From Solirubrobacterales bacterium (GTDB lineage: Bacteria; Actinomycetota; Thermoleophilia; Solirubrobacterales; 70-9): DNA of 39,590 nucleotides. Position 1 is the first letter of the stretch, and the number at the start of each line of letters is the position of its first letter. The position numbers were made by a program, and so were the translations under genes. Under the pieces are notes generated by a model. The model was not told the origin of the DNA. It saw nothing but the letters and a program-made list of their open reading frames with translations, and ran no database searches. Positions 7,400-34,916 of this stretch are shown here, piece by piece. The DNA is taken from contig JAGQUR010000071.1 in the NCBI GenBank assembly GCA_020438395.1, positions 1 to 39,590 on the forward strand, read 5' to 3'.

Positions 7400-8371
7400 C
7401 TAGGGGGCCGGAAGCTCGGTGATCTTCAGATCACCGTAAGTGTCGTAATCGATGCCATCCTGCTTGATGACCTGAATCACGACCTCGTCGTCACTGCTCA
7501 GTTGCTGGAGGGATTCACCCGACACCTGTGCCGTCTGGAGCGGAACCAGCATGGTGAGCAGGGTGAGATCCGTGTTGAAGAGGGGGAAGTCCTGAATGTC
7601 CTCACCAAGGCCGTTCACTTCGGTGATCAGAACGGGTGGCTGGCCACCGGTCGCGGTCACCGCCGAGGCCGGCCCGGTGGTGATTTCGGGCTCGATCAGG
7701 TAATAGCCGGAGTGCGGGGCCGTGAAGGTTCCGGACGACGCATCGAAGGTACCCGAGGGGTCGTACTCGTCGGTCCAGCCGGTCACCGTGTTGACCGAGT
7801 CGTTCATCACCTGGGGAGAACTCGAGGGAATCGACGCGAAGACCATGGGCAGGGCTCCCGTGAGCCCGGTGGCTCCGGTCGGACCGATCAGTCCCGTGAG
7901 CCCGGTCGGCCCCGTCGGTCCGATCTCGCCGATCAGTCCTGTGACACCCGTCGGTCCGGTTATCCCGATCGGGCCGGTCGGGCCGATCAGGCCCTGAATT
8001 CCCGTGGCACCGGTTGGTCCCGGGACGCCCGGCAGGCCGATCGCCCCTGTCGCACCAGTGGTCCCCGTCGGGCCGATCGGGCCGGTTGACCCAAGGGGTC
8101 CGATTGGTCCGGTCGTTCCCTTCGCTCCGGTCGCACCCTTCGGACCGGTCTTGCCGATGGTCATGGTCTGGCAGATGATCCTGACCGCCTTCTTGCGCTT
8201 CCTCTTCGGAACTCGCTTCTTGAAGGTGAAGACCGAGGTGATGGCCCGCTGGCACTGCCGCTGCTTCTTGGTGGCCGCACCGGAATCCGCCGGCATGGCG
8301 AGCAGCGCCACGGCCAGCAGAGCCGTCAAGGCGATGAATCCCGATCCCCTGATTCCCCTGGACTTGACCAC
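7400..8371 (-). CDS. Secreted collagen-like protein with C1q/BclA-like C-terminal domain
   Basis: A 323-residue surface protein of unknown role. A signal peptide ([20 protein letters not shown]) is followed by a basic segment with two Cys (KKQRQC and RIICQ), then 34 uninterrupted Gly-X-Y triplets starting at [10 protein letters not shown], rich in Thr and Pro as in bacterial collagens. The last 150 residues (from VFASIPSSS, with [15 protein letters not shown]) resemble the C1q/TNF-like trimer head of BclA-type filaments. It is likely a trimeric extracellular fibre. The start is GTG; a -10 box six bases upstream suggests a leaderless mRNA. Confidence 0.87.
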
Positions 8372-29731: not shown

Positions 29732-30741
29732 TGGCCGAGATCCGCATGCGCGAAGCGCTTCGGGATGCGATGGCCGAGGAGATGCGCCGCGACGGGAACG
29801 TCTTCGTGATGGGCGAAGACGTCGCCGTCTTCCAGGGGGCCTTCAAGGTGACCGAGGGCCTGATGGAGGAATTCGGCGAGAAGAGGGTCCGTGACACCCC
29901 GATCTCCGAGAACACGATCGTCGGGATCGGGGTCGGGGCGGCGATGGCCGGGCTCCGCCCGATCGTCGAGCTGATGACCGTGAACTTCTCCCTGCTGGCA
30001 CTCGACCAGATCGTCAATCACGCCGCCGCGATCCCCTACATGTTCAACGGCAACGCCCGGGTGCCGATGGTGATCCGCATGCCCGGCGGCGGTGGCCATC
30101 AGCTGGGCCCGACCCACTCCCACTCCTTCGAGGCGCTCTACCTGCAGGTGCCGGGCCTCCTGGTCGCCTGCCCCTCGACCCCGGCCGACGCAAAGGGACT
30201 GCTCAAGGCGGCAATCCGGGATGAGAACCCGGTCATCTTCATCGAGCACGAGAGCCTCTACGGGATCAAGGGCGAAGTGTCGGACGACGAAGACGAGATC
30301 GTCCGTTTCGGCGAGGCGGCCGTCCGCAGGGAAGGCGAGGACGTGACGATCGTCGGCATCCTCAAGATGGCCCATGTCGCGGAGCAGGCCGCCGCAGAGC
30401 TGGAAGAGAAGCACGGGATATCGGCCGAGGTGATCGACCCCCGGACGCTTCGTCCGCTCGATCTCGACACCATTCTCGCGTCGGTCAGGAAGACCAACCG
30501 GGCCGTGATCGTCGAGGAAGGATGGCCGCATGGCGGGGTCGGGGCGAACCTCTCCACCCTGATCACCGAACAGGCCTTCGACTGGCTGGATGCGCCGGTC
30601 CAGCGAGTCACCGGCGCAGACGTGCCGATGCCCTACTCGCGCCGGATGGAACAGGCTGCGATCCCCCATGAGGAAAACGTGATCGAGGCGGTGCTGGCCG
30701 CGACCGAAGGCGCAATTGGGCCGGGAAAGGGCGGGAGCTGA
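29728..30741 (+). CDS. pdhB: 2-oxoacid (pyruvate) dehydrogenase E1 component, beta subunit
   Basis: A 337-residue E1-beta. The N-terminus MREALRDAMAEEMRRDGNVF and the motif VFVMGEDVAVFQGAFKVTEG are typical, with PISENTIVGIGVGAAMAGLR, RMPGGGGHQLGPTHS and the C-terminal EEGWPHGGVGANL. It pairs with the alpha subunit to decarboxylate the 2-oxoacid and reduce the E2 lipoyl arm. It is joined to the alpha gene by ATGA and to the E2 gene by a one-base overlap. Confidence 0.93.
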   Translation: MMAEIRMREALRDAMAEEMRRDGNVFVMGEDVAVFQGAFKVTEGLMEEFGEKRVRDTPISENTIVGIGVGAAMAGLRPIVELMTVNFSLLALDQIVNHAAAIPYMFNGNARVPMVIRMPGGGGHQLGPTHSHSFEALYLQVPGLLVACPSTPADAKGLLKAAIRDENPVIFIEHESLYGIKGEVSDDEDEIVRFGEAAVRREGEDVTIVGILKMAHVAEQAAAELEEKHGISAEVIDPRTLRPLDLDTILASVRKTNRAVIVEEGWPHGGVGANLSTLITEQAFDWLDAPVQRVTGADVPMPYSRRMEQAAIPHEENVIEAVLAATEGAIGPGKGGS

Positions 30742-31985
30742 TGTCCGAGATCGTCATGCCCCGCCTGACCGACTCGATGGAGGAGGGAGTGATCCTCTCC
30801 TGGCTCAAGGCTGACGGGGACGAAATCGCAGTTGGGGACGAACTGGTCGAGATCGAGACCGACAAGGCCTCGATGGTCTACGAGTCCGACCTCGCCGGCA
30901 CCCTGGAGATCCTCGTGCCCGAAGGCGAGACCCGTCCGATCGGCGAGCCGATCGCCAGGATTGGCGAGGCTTCACCTGCTGACGCTGGCGAGGCGGTGGC
31001 CGATGGGGATCCTGTCGGCCGGACTTCGCCGGGAGTTCCATCGGGAACCCCAACGGCGCCCGCTCAGGCCCCGGTGCAGGACCATGATCACGCTGAGCAC
31101 ATCAAGGTCTCCCCGCTGGCCCGACGTATCGCAAAGGAGAAGGGTGTTGATCTCTCCGGTCTCACCGGATCCGGGCCCGGGGGGCGGATCATCAAGGTTG
31201 ATGTGGAAGCCGCTTCCGGGTCCGACCCGGCCACCGCGGCTGAACCTGCCTCACCCGCTCAGTCAGCTGCCGCCTCCCCGCCGGCCGACTCGGCCAAGGG
31301 CCCGCCGGAGACCGTCGAGCTGAACCGGACCCAGTCGCTGATCGCCCGACGCATGTCGGAGTCGAAGGCGACGATCCCTCACTTCTACCTGCGGACTGTG
31401 GTCGACATGGACCGGGCGGTCGAGGTCCGGGCCGCCTTCAAGGAGGAGGCCACCGAAGGCGAGACCGTGCCCTCGCTCAACGACTTCGTGGTCAAGGCGG
31501 CCGCAATCGCCCTTCGCCGCCATCCGATCGCCAACGCCGCCTTCCGGGACGGTCACTTCGAGCTCTACCCGAAGGTCAACGTCGGGATCGCCGTCGCGAC
31601 CGAGGGTTCGCTGATCGTGCCGGTGATCAAGGATGCCGATCACCTGTCCCTGGCCGAGATCAGCGAGGAGACCCGCCGCCTCGCCGGCCGGGTCCGCTCG
31701 GCCGAGATAACCCCGCCGGAGCTGGCGGGCGGAACCTTCACCGTCTCCAACCTCGGCATGTTCGGCGTGACCGGATTCGACGCCGTGATCAACCCGGGAC
31801 AGGCCGGCATCCTCTCGGTCGGCGAGGTCGCCGAAAAGCCGGTCGTGACCGACGGGAAGATCGGCTCCGCCCACCTGATGGAGATCACCCTGGCCTGCGA
31901 CCACCGCATCCTTTACGGGGCCGACGGCGCCGAGTTCCTCGCTTCGGTCAAGGCCAACCTCGAGGAACCCGGCCTGCTGGCCTGA
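30741..31985 (+). CDS. pdhC: Dihydrolipoamide acyltransferase (E2) of the 2-oxoacid dehydrogenase complex
   Basis: A 414-residue E2. One lipoyl domain at the N-terminus has the lipoylated Lys in EIETDKASMVYES. An Ala/Pro linker follows, then the peripheral subunit-binding domain (SPLARRIAKEKGVDLSGLTG) and the catalytic domain from about residue 195. The catalytic His is in CDHRILYGADGAEFL; where most E2 enzymes read HxxxDG, this one has Tyr instead of Asp. The product is acyl-CoA. It is followed 13 bases later by a second, shorter E2-like gene. Confidence 0.92.
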   Translation: MSEIVMPRLTDSMEEGVILSWLKADGDEIAVGDELVEIETDKASMVYESDLAGTLEILVPEGETRPIGEPIARIGEASPADAGEAVADGDPVGRTSPGVPSGTPTAPAQAPVQDHDHAEHIKVSPLARRIAKEKGVDLSGLTGSGPGGRIIKVDVEAASGSDPATAAEPASPAQSAAASPPADSAKGPPETVELNRTQSLIARRMSESKATIPHFYLRTVVDMDRAVEVRAAFKEEATEGETVPSLNDFVVKAAAIALRRHPIANAAFRDGHFELYPKVNVGIAVATEGSLIVPVIKDADHLSLAEISEETRRLAGRVRSAEITPPELAGGTFTVSNLGMFGVTGFDAVINPGQAGILSVGEVAEKPVVTDGKIGSAHLMEITLACDHRILYGADGAEFLASVKANLEEPGLLA

Positions 31986-31998
31986 CACCGGAGGCCCT

Positions 31999-32739
31999 TT
32001 GCCCATATCGTCAGTTCCAATGAGCGAAGAGGTCCAGACACCGTCCAGTCCCGTCGGCAGCAAGGGCGAGAGCGAGTTCGTCGAGTATTCGCGGGCCCGG
32101 CAGTCGATGTCGCGGCGGATCGCCGAGTCGAAGGCGACCATTCCCCACATCTACCTTCAGGTCGAGGCGGATGTCACCGCGCTGGTGCGTCGCCGGGCGG
32201 CGCTCCGCGCCGAGGGCGAGGCCCCGACCGTGAACGACCTGGTGATCAAGGCCACCGCCCTGGCCCTGCGAGACCACGGGCGGGTCAACAGCACCTACCG
32301 CGACGGCGGCATCGAAATCCACTCCCGGATCAACATCGGGGTCGCAGTGGACACCCCCGACGGTTCGGTCACGCCGGTCATCACCGACGCCGACAGCAAG
32401 GACCTGAACGAGATCGCGGCCGAGGTGCGCAGCCTCTCCACGCGGGCACGGTCCGGCGAGATAACCCCTCCCGAGCAAGCCGGCGCGACCTTCGCGATCT
32501 CCAACCTGGGCATGCTCGGAGTCACCAGTTCCGAGCCGGTCGTGAATCCCGGACAGGCGGCGAAGCTGGCGGTCGGCGTGGTCACCGAACGGCCGGTCGT
32601 CCGGGGTGGCGAAGTGGTCCCGGGCGATGTGATGACCCTGGATCTTTCCTGCGACCACCGTGTCCTTCACGGCGCCGAAGCCGCCCGTTTCCTGAACGAG
32701 GTCAAGGCGAACCTCGAGAATCCGGGACTGCTCGGATGA
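31999..32739 (+). CDS. E2-like acyltransferase catalytic domain without lipoyl domain
   Basis: A 246-residue paralogue of the E2 catalytic domain only; it lacks lipoyl and E1/E3-binding domains. The opening RQSMSRRIAESKATIPHIYL parallels the E2 (SLIARRMSESKATIPHFYL), and the end has CDHRVLHGAEAARFL with His in place of the usual Asp after the catalytic His. It may form mixed trimers or cores with the full E2. The TTG at 31999 has GGAGG four bases upstream; an ATG at 32020 is the alternative. Its stop overlaps the next start as ATGA. Confidence 0.83.
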   Translation: MPISSVPMSEEVQTPSSPVGSKGESEFVEYSRARQSMSRRIAESKATIPHIYLQVEADVTALVRRRAALRAEGEAPTVNDLVIKATALALRDHGRVNSTYRDGGIEIHSRINIGVAVDTPDGSVTPVITDADSKDLNEIAAEVRSLSTRARSGEITPPEQAGATFAISNLGMLGVTSSEPVVNPGQAAKLAVGVVTERPVVRGGEVVPGDVMTLDLSCDHRVLHGAEAARFLNEVKANLENPGLLG

Positions 32740-33170
32740 GCGACGGGCCCGCGACAGCCGATCCCGGCGCGGGCCCGAAGTGCGTGAAAAGTAGCGCCGG
32801 GGTTTCCGGGGGTCGCCGGGTCTTTCGGTCGGCCGGCGTCGCCGGCAGCGTGGGCGTAACCCATAGCGCCGGAGTTGCCGGCAGTGCCGGGGCCGGGTTC
32901 AGTGCCGGGGTCGCCGGCAGCGCCATCGTCCTTTTCAGCTCGGCGGTCACCTTCAGCTTCGCGGTGCTCGGCTCCACCCTGATGGCCTTCTGCGCCTTCT
33001 GCGTCGGATGCGCCCGGTGCCGGCGCTGCGCCTTCTGCGTCGGCTGCCGTGACTGCGTCGACTGTGTCGGTTGTGTCGGCTGTTCCGGGCTGGTCGGTGC
33101 ACGAGGGGTGGTCGGCAAGTCAGCCAGGAAGAACCGTTCGGGACTGTGCCGATGGCTGCCCTCACGGTGA
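32736..33170 (+). CDS. Unusual three-residue-periodic Cys-repeat protein (putative)
   Basis: A 144-residue frame of no family I know. From residue 20 to 116, every third residue follows one register: Ser and Val alternate (S20, V23 ... S80) with three exceptions (G26, A53, M83), then Cys at 86, 89, 92 and on to 116, eleven in a row at spacing three (for example CAFCVGCARCRRCAFC). The intervening residues are mostly Ala and Gly at first. Support for it being real: ATGA overlap with the E2-like gene, 19-bp overlap with lipB, and GC-rich third positions like its neighbours. Against: the DNA repeat alone could give such patterns. Solenoid folding or metal/thiol binding is inference. Confidence 0.5.
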   Translation: MSDGPATADPGAGPKCVKSSAGVSGGRRVFRSAGVAGSVGVTHSAGVAGSAGAGFSAGVAGSAIVLFSSAVTFSFAVLGSTLMAFCAFCVGCARCRRCAFCVGCRDCVDCVGCVGCSGLVGARGVVGKSARKNRSGLCRWLPSR

Positions 33171-33955
33171 TCGATCTCGGCCGCCGCGAGTACGCGGAGA
33201 TGGTGGCTCTCCAGGAGCGACTGGCCGAGCTTCGCCTGGAAGGTTCGGTCGGGGACCTGCTGCTGTTGCTCGAGCACCCGCCCACCTACACGCTGGGCCG
33301 CCGCTCCGAGCCCTCCGACCTCCTCCACGATTCCGGCTGGTACGAGGAGCGCGGGATCGCGATCTGTGAGACCCCCCGTGGCGGCAAAGTGACCTACCAC
33401 GGGCCGGGCCAACTGGTCGCCTACCCGATCGTCGATCTGCGGGGAGTCGGCGCCCAGCCGTCCGGCGCCGACCGGGTCGACGTCGCCGGCTTCGTCGCCG
33501 CCCTGGAGCAGTCGATGTCGGGGGCACTCGCCGAGTGGGGCCTCGCGACCGGCCGGATCGAGGGCCTGACCGGTCTCTGGGTAGACGACGACCGCCCGGA
33601 CCGCGCCGACTTCGAGGGGGCCGATGCCGCGTCGGCCGCACCGGGCCTCGCCCGGGGAAGCATCCGCAAGATCGGTTCGATCGGCCTGAAGATCCGCCGC
33701 GGGGTCAGCACCCACGGGCTCTCGATCAATGTTTCCTGCAACCTTGACCCCTTCGACTGGATCAACTCCTGCGGCATCGAGGCCTGTCGCGCCACCTCGA
33801 TCGCGGCCGAGCTCGGCGAGGAAGGCCCGTCGGTGGCCGCGGTCGGCGCTGCCGTCGCCGGGCGGCTGGCCGACGGGTTGGGACTCAAAACGACCGAGGG
33901 CAGGGCCGCGGAGATCGATCTCACCGAAGCGCAGCGGGTCGATTCCGTAGCCTAG
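33152..33955 (+). CDS. lipB: Octanoyltransferase LipB
   Basis: A 267-residue enzyme that moves octanoate from acyl-carrier protein to lipoyl domains. LLLLEHPPTYTLGRRSEP, GGKVTYHGPGQLVAYPIVD and KIGSIGLKIRRGVSTHGLSI are family motifs, and the catalytic Cys is in NSCGIEA. About 25 extra Asp/Ala-rich residues lie before the KIGSIG motif (coded near 33585-33660). The start at 33152 gives a normal N-terminus (AALTVIDLGRREYAEM); a GTG six bases earlier is possible. It is followed seven bases later by lipA, so both act on the E2 of this operon. Confidence 0.93.
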   Translation: MAALTVIDLGRREYAEMVALQERLAELRLEGSVGDLLLLLEHPPTYTLGRRSEPSDLLHDSGWYEERGIAICETPRGGKVTYHGPGQLVAYPIVDLRGVGAQPSGADRVDVAGFVAALEQSMSGALAEWGLATGRIEGLTGLWVDDDRPDRADFEGADAASAAPGLARGSIRKIGSIGLKIRRGVSTHGLSINVSCNLDPFDWINSCGIEACRATSIAAELGEEGPSVAAVGAAVAGRLADGLGLKTTEGRAAEIDLTEAQRVDSVA

Positions 33956-33962
33956 GAGACCG

Positions 33963-34916
33963 GTGGACACCGCAGACCGCATTCACGTCACCCGTTCCCG
34001 CGCCAATCCCGGCGGCGGTGACGTCCAGCTTGACGACGCTATCCCGTTCCGTTCCCGCAAGCCTTCCTGGCTGAAGGTCCCCCCGCCCGGCGGCCCGGTC
34101 TACCGCGAGATCAAGCAGATGATCGACGGCGAGAGCCTGAACACCGTCTGCGAGGAGGCAAACTGCCCGAACATCGGTGAGTGCTGGGAGCGCGGGACCG
34201 CCACCTTCATGATCCTCGGCGACGTCTGCACCCGGCGCTGCGGCTTCTGCAACGTCCAGACCGGCAAGCCGACCCACAACGACCCGCTGGAGCCGGCCCG
34301 GGTCGCGATGCAGGTCAAGCGGCTCGGCCTCTCCCACGCGGTGATCACCTCGGTCGACCGCGACGACCTGCCCGATTACGGAGCCTCCGCCTTCGTCGGG
34401 GTGATCCGCTCGATCCGCGCCCAGGCCCCGGGCTGCAAGGTCGAAATCCTGACTCCCGACTTCCGCGGCCAGGAGATGCCGCTTGCCCGGGTCGTCCACG
34501 AGCGGCCCGACGTGTTCAACCACAACGTCGAGACCGTGCCGCGGCTCTACCCGAAGGCCAGGCGTGGCTCGAAGTTTCTGCGCTCGGCCCGGGTGCTCCG
34601 CCTGGCCCGCGAGATGGGCGAAGGCGAGGTGATCACCAAGTCGGGACTGATGGTCGGCCTCGGCGAGGAGTTCGACGAGATGGTCGAGACCTTCGGCATC
34701 CTCCGCGAGCACGGGGTCCAGATCCTCACGGTCGGCCAGTACCTTCGCCCGACCGTCAATCACCTGCCGGTGGTGCGCTACTGGCATCCCGAGGAATTCG
34801 AAGCCCTGGAGAAGGCGGCATACGAGATCGGCTTCGAGTCGGTTGCCGCCGGACCGCTGGTCCGCAGCTCCTACCACGCGGACGAAAGCGCCCGCAAGGC
34901 CGCCGAAGCTGCCTGA
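33963..34916 (+). CDS. lipA: Lipoyl synthase LipA
   Basis: A 317-residue radical-SAM enzyme that inserts two sulfurs into the octanoyl group. The auxiliary cluster ligands are in CEEANCPNIGECW, the radical-SAM cluster in CTRRCGFC, and the conserved Ser ligand in RSSYHA near the C-terminus. The start is GTG with TAGGAG upstream. It ends the pdh-lip gene run; the next gene is separated by 119 bp. Confidence 0.97.
   Translation: MDTADRIHVTRSRANPGGGDVQLDDAIPFRSRKPSWLKVPPPGGPVYREIKQMIDGESLNTVCEEANCPNIGECWERGTATFMILGDVCTRRCGFCNVQTGKPTHNDPLEPARVAMQVKRLGLSHAVITSVDRDDLPDYGASAFVGVIRSIRAQAPGCKVEILTPDFRGQEMPLARVVHERPDVFNHNVETVPRLYPKARRGSKFLRSARVLRLAREMGEGEVITKSGLMVGLGEEFDEMVETFGILREHGVQILTVGQYLRPTVNHLPVVRYWHPEEFEALEKAAYEIGFESVAAGPLVRSSYHADESARKAAEAA

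What the first reader, a model, noticed from the sequence alone, without database searches (positions are those of the whole stretch)
32736..33170. A strict three-residue repeat ORF with eleven Cys at every third position, between the E2 paralogue and lipB
From residue 20 to 116, 33 consecutive third positions keep one register. Ser and Val alternate for about 60 residues (exceptions G26, A53 and M83), then Cys occupies residues 86 to 116 without a miss. It is embedded in a lipoylation operon by ATGA and 19-bp overlaps. I know no family for it. It could be a solenoid with a Cys ladder that binds metal or takes part in lipoyl/thiol chemistry, or a repeat-expanded DNA tract translated by chance.
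Basis: partly seen in the sequence, partly recalled or inferred. Interest (0 to 1): 0.8.

Follow-up and report, generated by a model that had tools for sequence, protein, structure and literature searches.

The report
Bacterial solenoid protein with cysteine core
The odd repeat is a real, conserved and unnamed bacterial protein family in which every third residue (first serine, valine or threonine, then 8 to 12 cysteines in a row) probably points into a thin coil, making a column of sulfur atoms whose job, perhaps metal or thiol handling, is not known.

Summary
In the window's genus 16 of 18 genomes have a match, 15 of them strong, and nearly all the readable ones lie between E2 or the E2 paralogue and lipB, in frame. 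dN/dS is about 0.2-0.3 and the other five frames have stops. Outside the genus, 61 further loci (Pseudonocardia, Actinomycetospora, Geodermatophilus, Solirubrobacter, Acidimicrobiia and others) share the design: a 12-residue unit with Ser, Val, Ser, Thr at every third position, then usually 8-12 Cys at every third position, then an invariant C-terminus. No Pfam or NCBIfam model covers it. Repeat identity peaks at lag 12, not 18. AlphaFold2 gives all-strand solenoids of modest confidence; the best solved match for a sister protein is beetle antifreeze protein, a 12-residue right-handed beta-helix whose inward residues are every third. The most likely anatomy is a beta-solenoid with a Ser/Val/Thr core and an all-Cys end. 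It lacks the ice-binding TxT motif and a signal peptide, so the Cys are probably cytosolic thiols: a metal or redox sink is my best guess (about 0.35). A lipoylation role is poorly supported, because outside this genus the neighbours are unrelated. Similar Cys ladders occur in Campylobacter phages.

The parts
32736..33170 (+). Period-3 repeat protein with Cys ladder, 144 aa (the finding)
   Evidence: Intact ORF; in-frame orthologues in 14 loci of the genus at the same place; purifying selection; 61 more loci outside the genus
32736..32739 (+). ATGA start/stop overlap with the E2 paralogue
   Evidence: kept as ATGA or GTGA in the closest relatives, directly behind the E2 stop in the others
32793..32990 (+). 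Residues 20-85: repeat of 12 residues with S and V (T in relatives) at every third position
   Evidence: Lag-12 identity 0.56 in the window, 0.62 over the family
32991..33083 (+). Residues 86-116: eleven Cys at every third position
   Evidence: the last seven register positions are Cys in all 55 aligned members
33084..33122 (+). Residues 117-129: conserved C-terminal motif x-G-L-x-G-A-R-G-V-V-G-K-S (family: C-V-G-L-R-G-A-V-G-x-x-G-V)
   Evidence: G118 and L119 invariant, G121, A122, G124 and G127 nearly invariant in 55 members
31999..32739 (+). E2 paralogue, catalytic domain only, directly upstream
   Evidence: PF00198 only, 4.2e-73
33152..33955 (+). lipB (lipoyl(octanoyl) transferase), directly downstream, overlapping by 19 bp
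   Evidence: LplA-B_cat 7.4e-36
30741..31985 (+). E2 (lipoyl domain, E3-binding domain, catalytic domain)
33963..34916 (+). lipA (lipoyl synthase)
   Evidence: Radical_SAM and LIAS_N

Best explanation
A real, unnamed actinobacterial protein family (shown; about 0.98). Its chain most likely winds into a narrow beta-solenoid of 12 residues per coil in which every third residue points inward, as in the beetle antifreeze protein TmAFP (inferred from period, models and fold match; about 0.65). The N-terminal coils have a Ser/Val/Ser/Thr core; the last two to three coils have a core made almost wholly of Cys, closed by an invariant C-terminal G-L-x-G-A-x-G-x-x-G segment. With no signal peptide the Cys are probably in the reducing cytosol, so the all-Cys end would be a column of thiolates that acts as a reversible sink for soft metal ions or for oxidising/thiol stress (inferred; about 0.35). 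In the window's genus the gene was placed in the E2-lipB-lipA operon and inherited vertically; a role specific to lipoylation is unlikely (about 0.1).
For: Real gene: same frame and place in 14 loci of the genus, 16 of 18 genomes with a match; pN/pS 0.33, identity by codon position 0.78/0.82/0.51, no stops in frame against 2-28 in the other five frames. Family: 75 loci with the same register and C-terminus. 12-residue coil: family identity 0.62 at lag 12 against 0.42 at lags 6 and 18; register residues 0.78 against 0.50 and 0.49. Internal repeat kept at protein level: lag-36-nt identity 0.58/0.60/0.44 by codon position, composition expects 0.33/0.32/0.40. Fold: both AlphaFold2 models contain strands and no helix; in the L051 model the strand bridges fall at every third residue through the ladder, with block-mean pLDDT of 73-79 over residues 111-150; VIA-align best match TmAFP 1l1i, Z 7.1, rmsd 3.4, all 84 target residues aligned. 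In TmAFP-type repeats the published in/out pattern is inward at residues 2, 5, 8 and 11 of 12, and the modelled beetle protein has Cys 15, 18 and 21, i.e. three successive inward positions (PMC8038014). Cys conserved: the last seven register Cys are invariant in 55 members. No N-terminal hydrophobic signal in any of 55. Phage proteins with long Cys ladders and polar outer residues show the same every-third arrangement.
Against: The models are of modest confidence (mean pLDDT 62.5 and 63.4; pTM 0.41 and 0.52), the window model is poor over its own Cys ladder (about 50), and its best matches are left-handed beta-helix proteins at rmsd about 9-12. Z 7.1 is within the range that the tool calls common for models without a clear match, and Foldseek gave the same TmAFP hit only E 5.1. 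No metal ligand other than Cys and no metal-homeostasis gene nearby supports the sink. The outward residues are strikingly hydrophobic (A, V, I, G), which fits an assembly or membrane contact as well as a soluble sink.
Confidence: 0.4

Rival explanations
1. Structural or assembly protein: the same solenoid, but the Cys column is a disulfide- or packing-stabilised end cap and the hydrophobic outer faces drive dimer, fibre or membrane-surface assembly; no metal is involved.
For: A, G, V and S make up 63% of the 55 aligned proteins, with few charges; V or I at the first outer position of nearly every Cys triplet; the most hydrophobic 19-residue stretch has a median Kyte-Doolittle mean of 2.06. 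TmAFP-type helices are held by disulfides between inward Cys six residues apart (PMC8038014).
Against: No export signal in 55 members, and disulfides are unlikely in the cytosol. Nothing shows assembly.
Confidence: 0.3
2. Lipoylation or pyruvate dehydrogenase accessory protein: the thiol column serves as a sulfur or lipoyl/thiol-exchange partner for LipA, LipB or E2.
For: Translationally coupled to the E2 paralogue and overlapping lipB in the window; 14 loci of the genus keep the place between E2 and lipB.
Against: Outside the genus none of 61 loci has E2, lipB or lipA among the nearest genes; neighbours are AMP-binding enzymes, MFS, APH, cyclases, MiaB-like and others. Of the genus, G014 keeps E2 and lipB with only 82 bp between them, and L019 (G005) keeps 112 bp with no ladder ORF, so the operon works without it.
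Confidence: 0.1
3. Membrane protein: the hydrophobic stretch before and into the Cys ladder is a transmembrane segment and the Cys lie at the membrane face.
For: Hydrophobicity of that stretch exceeds usual thresholds in all members.
Against: Neither AlphaFold2 model has a helix; the strict period of 3 and 12 runs through the stretch, which fits no alpha-helix.
Confidence: 0.12
4. Repeat-expanded DNA tract translated by chance, or an antisense gene.
For: A tandem-repeat finder sees an 18-bp array at 32990-33047, and one antisense frame is open in the window.
Against: Conservation of frame, register and Cys; synonymous-biased change; third codon positions do not repeat; stops in the other five frames of relatives.
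Confidence: 0.01

Closest known systems
Tenebrio molitor antifreeze protein (TmAFP, PDB 1l1i / 1EZG) and beetle relatives
   Same: 12-residue repeat; inward residue every third position, with Ser and Cys among them (PMC8038014); best solved match of the L051 model
   Different: No TxT ice-binding array, no signal peptide; here Cys fills all four inward positions in the last coils and none in the first; no detectable sequence kinship
PHROG 15341 and related Cys-ladder proteins of Campylobacter phages (hypothetical proteins, e.g. YP_009169166.1)
   Same: Cys at every third position over ten or more triplets
   Different: Polar outer residues (N, K, D, E, S), a different N-terminal segment, no Ser/Val/Thr repeat; the profile match to the window ORF is weak (2.4e-4, residues 86-117)
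Cytosolic copper storage protein Csp3 and bacterial metallothioneins (functional analogy only)
   Same: Small protein, no export signal, many Cys (review PMC7558416)
   Different: Csp is a four-helix bundle; the models here have no helix. No metal data
Collagen triple-helix repeat (PF01391)
   Same: Period 3 with Gly or Ala common at one position
   Different: All scores below Pfam's cut-off (best 27.0 against 27.2), no G-X-Y with Pro; the conserved residue is S/V/T/C, not Gly
Left-handed beta-helix, hexapeptide repeats (GlmU, gamma-carbonic anhydrase)
   Same: Hexapeptide sub-period; listed among fold matches of the window model
   Different: Those coils are 18 residues; here identity peaks at lag 12

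Membership tests
Beetle (TmAFP-type) antifreeze proteins | Tandem 12-residue repeat | tested here: met
   Lag-12 identity 0.62 over 55 members
Beetle (TmAFP-type) antifreeze proteins | Inward residues at every third position, including Cys at 2 and 8 | tested here: inconclusive
   Period-3 register met; side-chain direction known only from modest models
Beetle (TmAFP-type) antifreeze proteins | T-x-T ice-binding array | tested here: not met
   11 TxT in 55 proteins, one protein with three or more
Beetle (TmAFP-type) antifreeze proteins | Signal peptide, secretion | tested here: not met
   No hydrophobic N-terminal stretch in 55 members by a simple hydropathy screen
Right-handed 12-residue beta-helix fold | Backbone fold | tested here: inconclusive
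   TmAFP best by VIA-align, Z 7.1, rmsd 3.4 over 84 residues, but Foldseek E 5.1
Hexapeptide left-handed beta-helix | 18-residue coil | tested here: not met
   Identity 0.42 at lag 18, 0.62 at lag 12; no Pfam hexapeptide hit
Collagen triple helix (PF01391) | Pfam gathering score | tested here: not met
   Best 27.0 bits, cut-off 27.2; window ORF 10.6 bits
PHROG 15341 (phage Cys-ladder proteins) | Cys at every third position | tested here: met
PHROG 15341 (phage Cys-ladder proteins) | Significant match over the whole profile | tested here: inconclusive
   Only residues 86-117 match, E 2.4e-4, driven by Cys spacing
Csp copper storage proteins | Four-helix bundle with Cys core | tested here: not met
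   No helix in either model; no Pfam match
Csp copper storage proteins / metallothioneins | Binds several Cu(I) or Zn ions | not testable with these tools
   Needs purified protein

The most novel reading that the evidence does not exclude
A protein solenoid whose core is a continuous column of cysteine thiolates, about four per 12-residue coil over two to three coils, that holds a linear metal-thiolate or redox-active sulfur stack inside the cytosol: a cysteine-core scaffold with no described precedent, found by convergence or kinship in actinobacteria and phages.
Probability: 0.3. Interest if true: 0.85.

Novelty: new variant of a known kind. Interest (0 to 1): 0.62.

Why it matters
A conserved family with no Pfam or NCBIfam model, present in cultured genera such as Pseudonocardia, keeps an all-cysteine register in a repeat of fixed geometry. 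If the Cys do line a solenoid core, it would be a genetically simple scaffold for stacked metal-thiolate sites or stored thiols, and would make the recurring 'Cys at every third position' proteins of phages and bacteria testable as one structural class.

Tried and rejected
Chance ORF, DNA repeat expansion or antisense gene: rejected. A second copy in the window's own genome (L002, E 0.08): chance, its open frame holds no ladder. Rfam on the locus: nothing. PDB sequence search with the profile: only low-complexity matches. Plasmid collection: no match. Phage records: no match for the family member L051; only the separate phage ladder proteins were found. RiPP precursor (Ser/Thr/Cys-rich core): considered; the Pfam tally of 110 nearest neighbours shows no recurrent family (top count 6) and no modification enzyme among the 25 families listed. 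More distant genome-search hits (L118, L120, L125) are Val-Gly-rich or other-frame repeats without a Cys ladder. A search for one guessed HTH family in relatives was uninformative, since its controls did not ring either. Literature searches for a three-residue or cysteine-ladder solenoid of this kind found none. Window-model fold matches to GlmU and carbonic anhydrases have rmsd about 9-12 and were not trusted.

Full report
Observation. The ORF at 32736-33170 (+) encodes 144 residues. It starts in an ATGA overlap with the E2 paralogue and overlaps lipB by 19 bp. The neighbours are E1 beta, E2, a catalytic-domain-only E2 paralogue, lipB and lipA.

Is it a gene? Yes. The window's genome is a 2.6-Mb assembly, 86% complete; its relatives are named Solirubrobacterales MAGs. 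Fourteen genus loci carry the ORF at the same place and in the same frame, with the start in ATGA or GTGA overlap with the E2 stop or directly behind it. A profile search finds a match in 16 of 18 genomes of the genus, one of them (G005) weak and at another place. G014 has only 82 bp, and L019 (G005) 112 bp, between E2 and lipB, without the ladder ORF. Among the eight closest loci, pN/pS averages 0.33, identity by codon position is 0.78, 0.82 and 0.51, the reading frame has no stops and the other five frames have 2 to 28. The internal 36-nt repeat is strong at codon positions 1 and 2 (0.58, 0.60; expected 0.33, 0.32) but near composition at position 3 (0.44; expected 0.40). So the repeat is kept by selection on the protein, not by recent DNA expansion.

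How wide is the family? A scan of 84,980 species genomes returned 75 loci. Fourteen belong to the window's clade, which is supported 100/99 in a tree. The other 61 are mostly Pseudonocardia and Actinomycetospora, with Geodermatophilus, Blastococcus, Solirubrobacter, Acidimicrobiia and a few MAGs labelled Dormibacterota, Chloroflexi, Acidobacteria and Polyangiaceae (the last kinds could be binning errors). About half of 98 genomes of the genus that holds G098 have it (47); over a spread of the phylum it is rare (11 of 396). All full-length members share one plan: a 12-residue unit such as S-V-A-V-A-G-S-V-A-T-A-G (register S, V, S, T), a run of usually 8-12 Cys at every third position, then C-V-G-L-R-G-A-V-G-x-x-G-V near the C-terminus. 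The last seven register Cys and the G-L pair are invariant in 55 aligned members. No Pfam or NCBIfam model claims it; collagen scores stay below the cut-off.

Context. Outside the genus no locus has E2, lipB or lipA next to the gene. Neighbours differ from genus to genus: AMP-binding enzymes, MFS, APH, adenylate cyclase, GntR, MiaB-like, EAL/GGDEF and so on; of 110 nearest neighbours no Pfam family occurs more than six times. In six genus loci (L012-L016, L021) the gene follows a full-length E2 directly, so its place there does not depend on the E2 paralogue. The lipoylation link is thus a feature of one lineage, and I judge a lipoylation-specific role unlikely.

Anatomy. Over the family, identity is 0.62 at lag 12 against 0.42 at lags 6 and 18; for register residues alone 0.78 against 0.50 and 0.49. 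In a solenoid, like residues stack at the length of one coil, so this argues for 12 residues per coil and against the 18 of hexapeptide left-handed helices (inference). AlphaFold2 models, made from alignments of 55 and 31 members, are all strand and turn with no helix, at modest confidence (mean pLDDT 63.4 for the window, 62.5 for L051). The L051 model has bridges at every third residue through the Cys ladder. Its best solved match is beetle antifreeze protein 1l1i (Z 7.1, rmsd 3.4, all 84 residues); Foldseek ranked it third without significance. [quoted passage not shown] the modelled beetle protein has Cys at 15, 18 and 21, i.e. three successive inward positions (PMC8038014). That is the same spacing as here. 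The window's own model is poor over the ladder and matches left-handed helices badly, so handedness is not settled.

What it does. Shown: the sequence, its conservation and its distribution. Inferred: the solenoid. Guessed: function. There is no signal peptide by a simple screen, no TxT ice-binding array and no metal-related partner. Because the Cys would be reduced in the cytosol, a thiol or soft-metal sink is the most economical idea; by analogy, cytosolic Csp3 proteins line a helical core with Cys and bind up to 20 Cu(I) per monomer (PMC7558416). The strongly hydrophobic outer faces keep an assembly role open as the main rival.

Relatives by design. Viral contigs and Campylobacter phages encode other proteins with Cys at every third position (for example CP220 YP_009169166.1) but with polar outer residues; PHROG 15341, of unknown function, also touches the window's ladder weakly. 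Two predicted viral proteins, from a mimivirus and a Campylobacter phage, are the best fold matches in the viral library (E 0.011 and 0.022, probability 1.00). Whether these are kin or convergent cannot be told from Cys spacing alone.

Verdict. A real, undescribed protein family with a likely beta-solenoid fold and a probable all-cysteine core; function open. New variant of a known kind (12-residue beta-solenoid).

Noticed in passing
L127:4935-5276, L128:4926-5294, L130:407-616, L131:392-763: Phage proteins with Cys at every third position and polar outer residues (PHROG 15341 matches the first two; the last two are Campylobacter phage hypothetical proteins), a second class of Cys-ladder protein.
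   Followed up: partly
window:31999-32739: E2 paralogue with the catalytic domain only (no lipoyl or E3-binding domain); its motif reads DHRVLHG and that of the E2 reads DHRILYG, where acyltransferases usually have DHRxxDG (the usual motif is from general knowledge).
   Followed up: partly
window:7400-8371 (-): Collagen-like protein with a likely signal peptide and G-P-T-G repeats, the source of the tandem repeats at 7853-8150.
   Followed up: no
L006 (G012:C39) and L121 (G012:C235): One genus MAG holds two different copies of E2 paralogue plus Cys-ladder gene, perhaps two strains in one bin.
   Followed up: no
L081: A contig titled Bifidobacterium breve MAG groups with Svornostia (Solirubrobacterales) in the family tree; the title is probably wrong.
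   Followed up: no
L126:4917-5627, L129:11-1105: Viral contigs with (C-V-G-C-A-G)n repeats before a DUF4326 domain (L126) or a long charged protein (L129); the repeat may be out of frame with the real gene.
   Followed up: no
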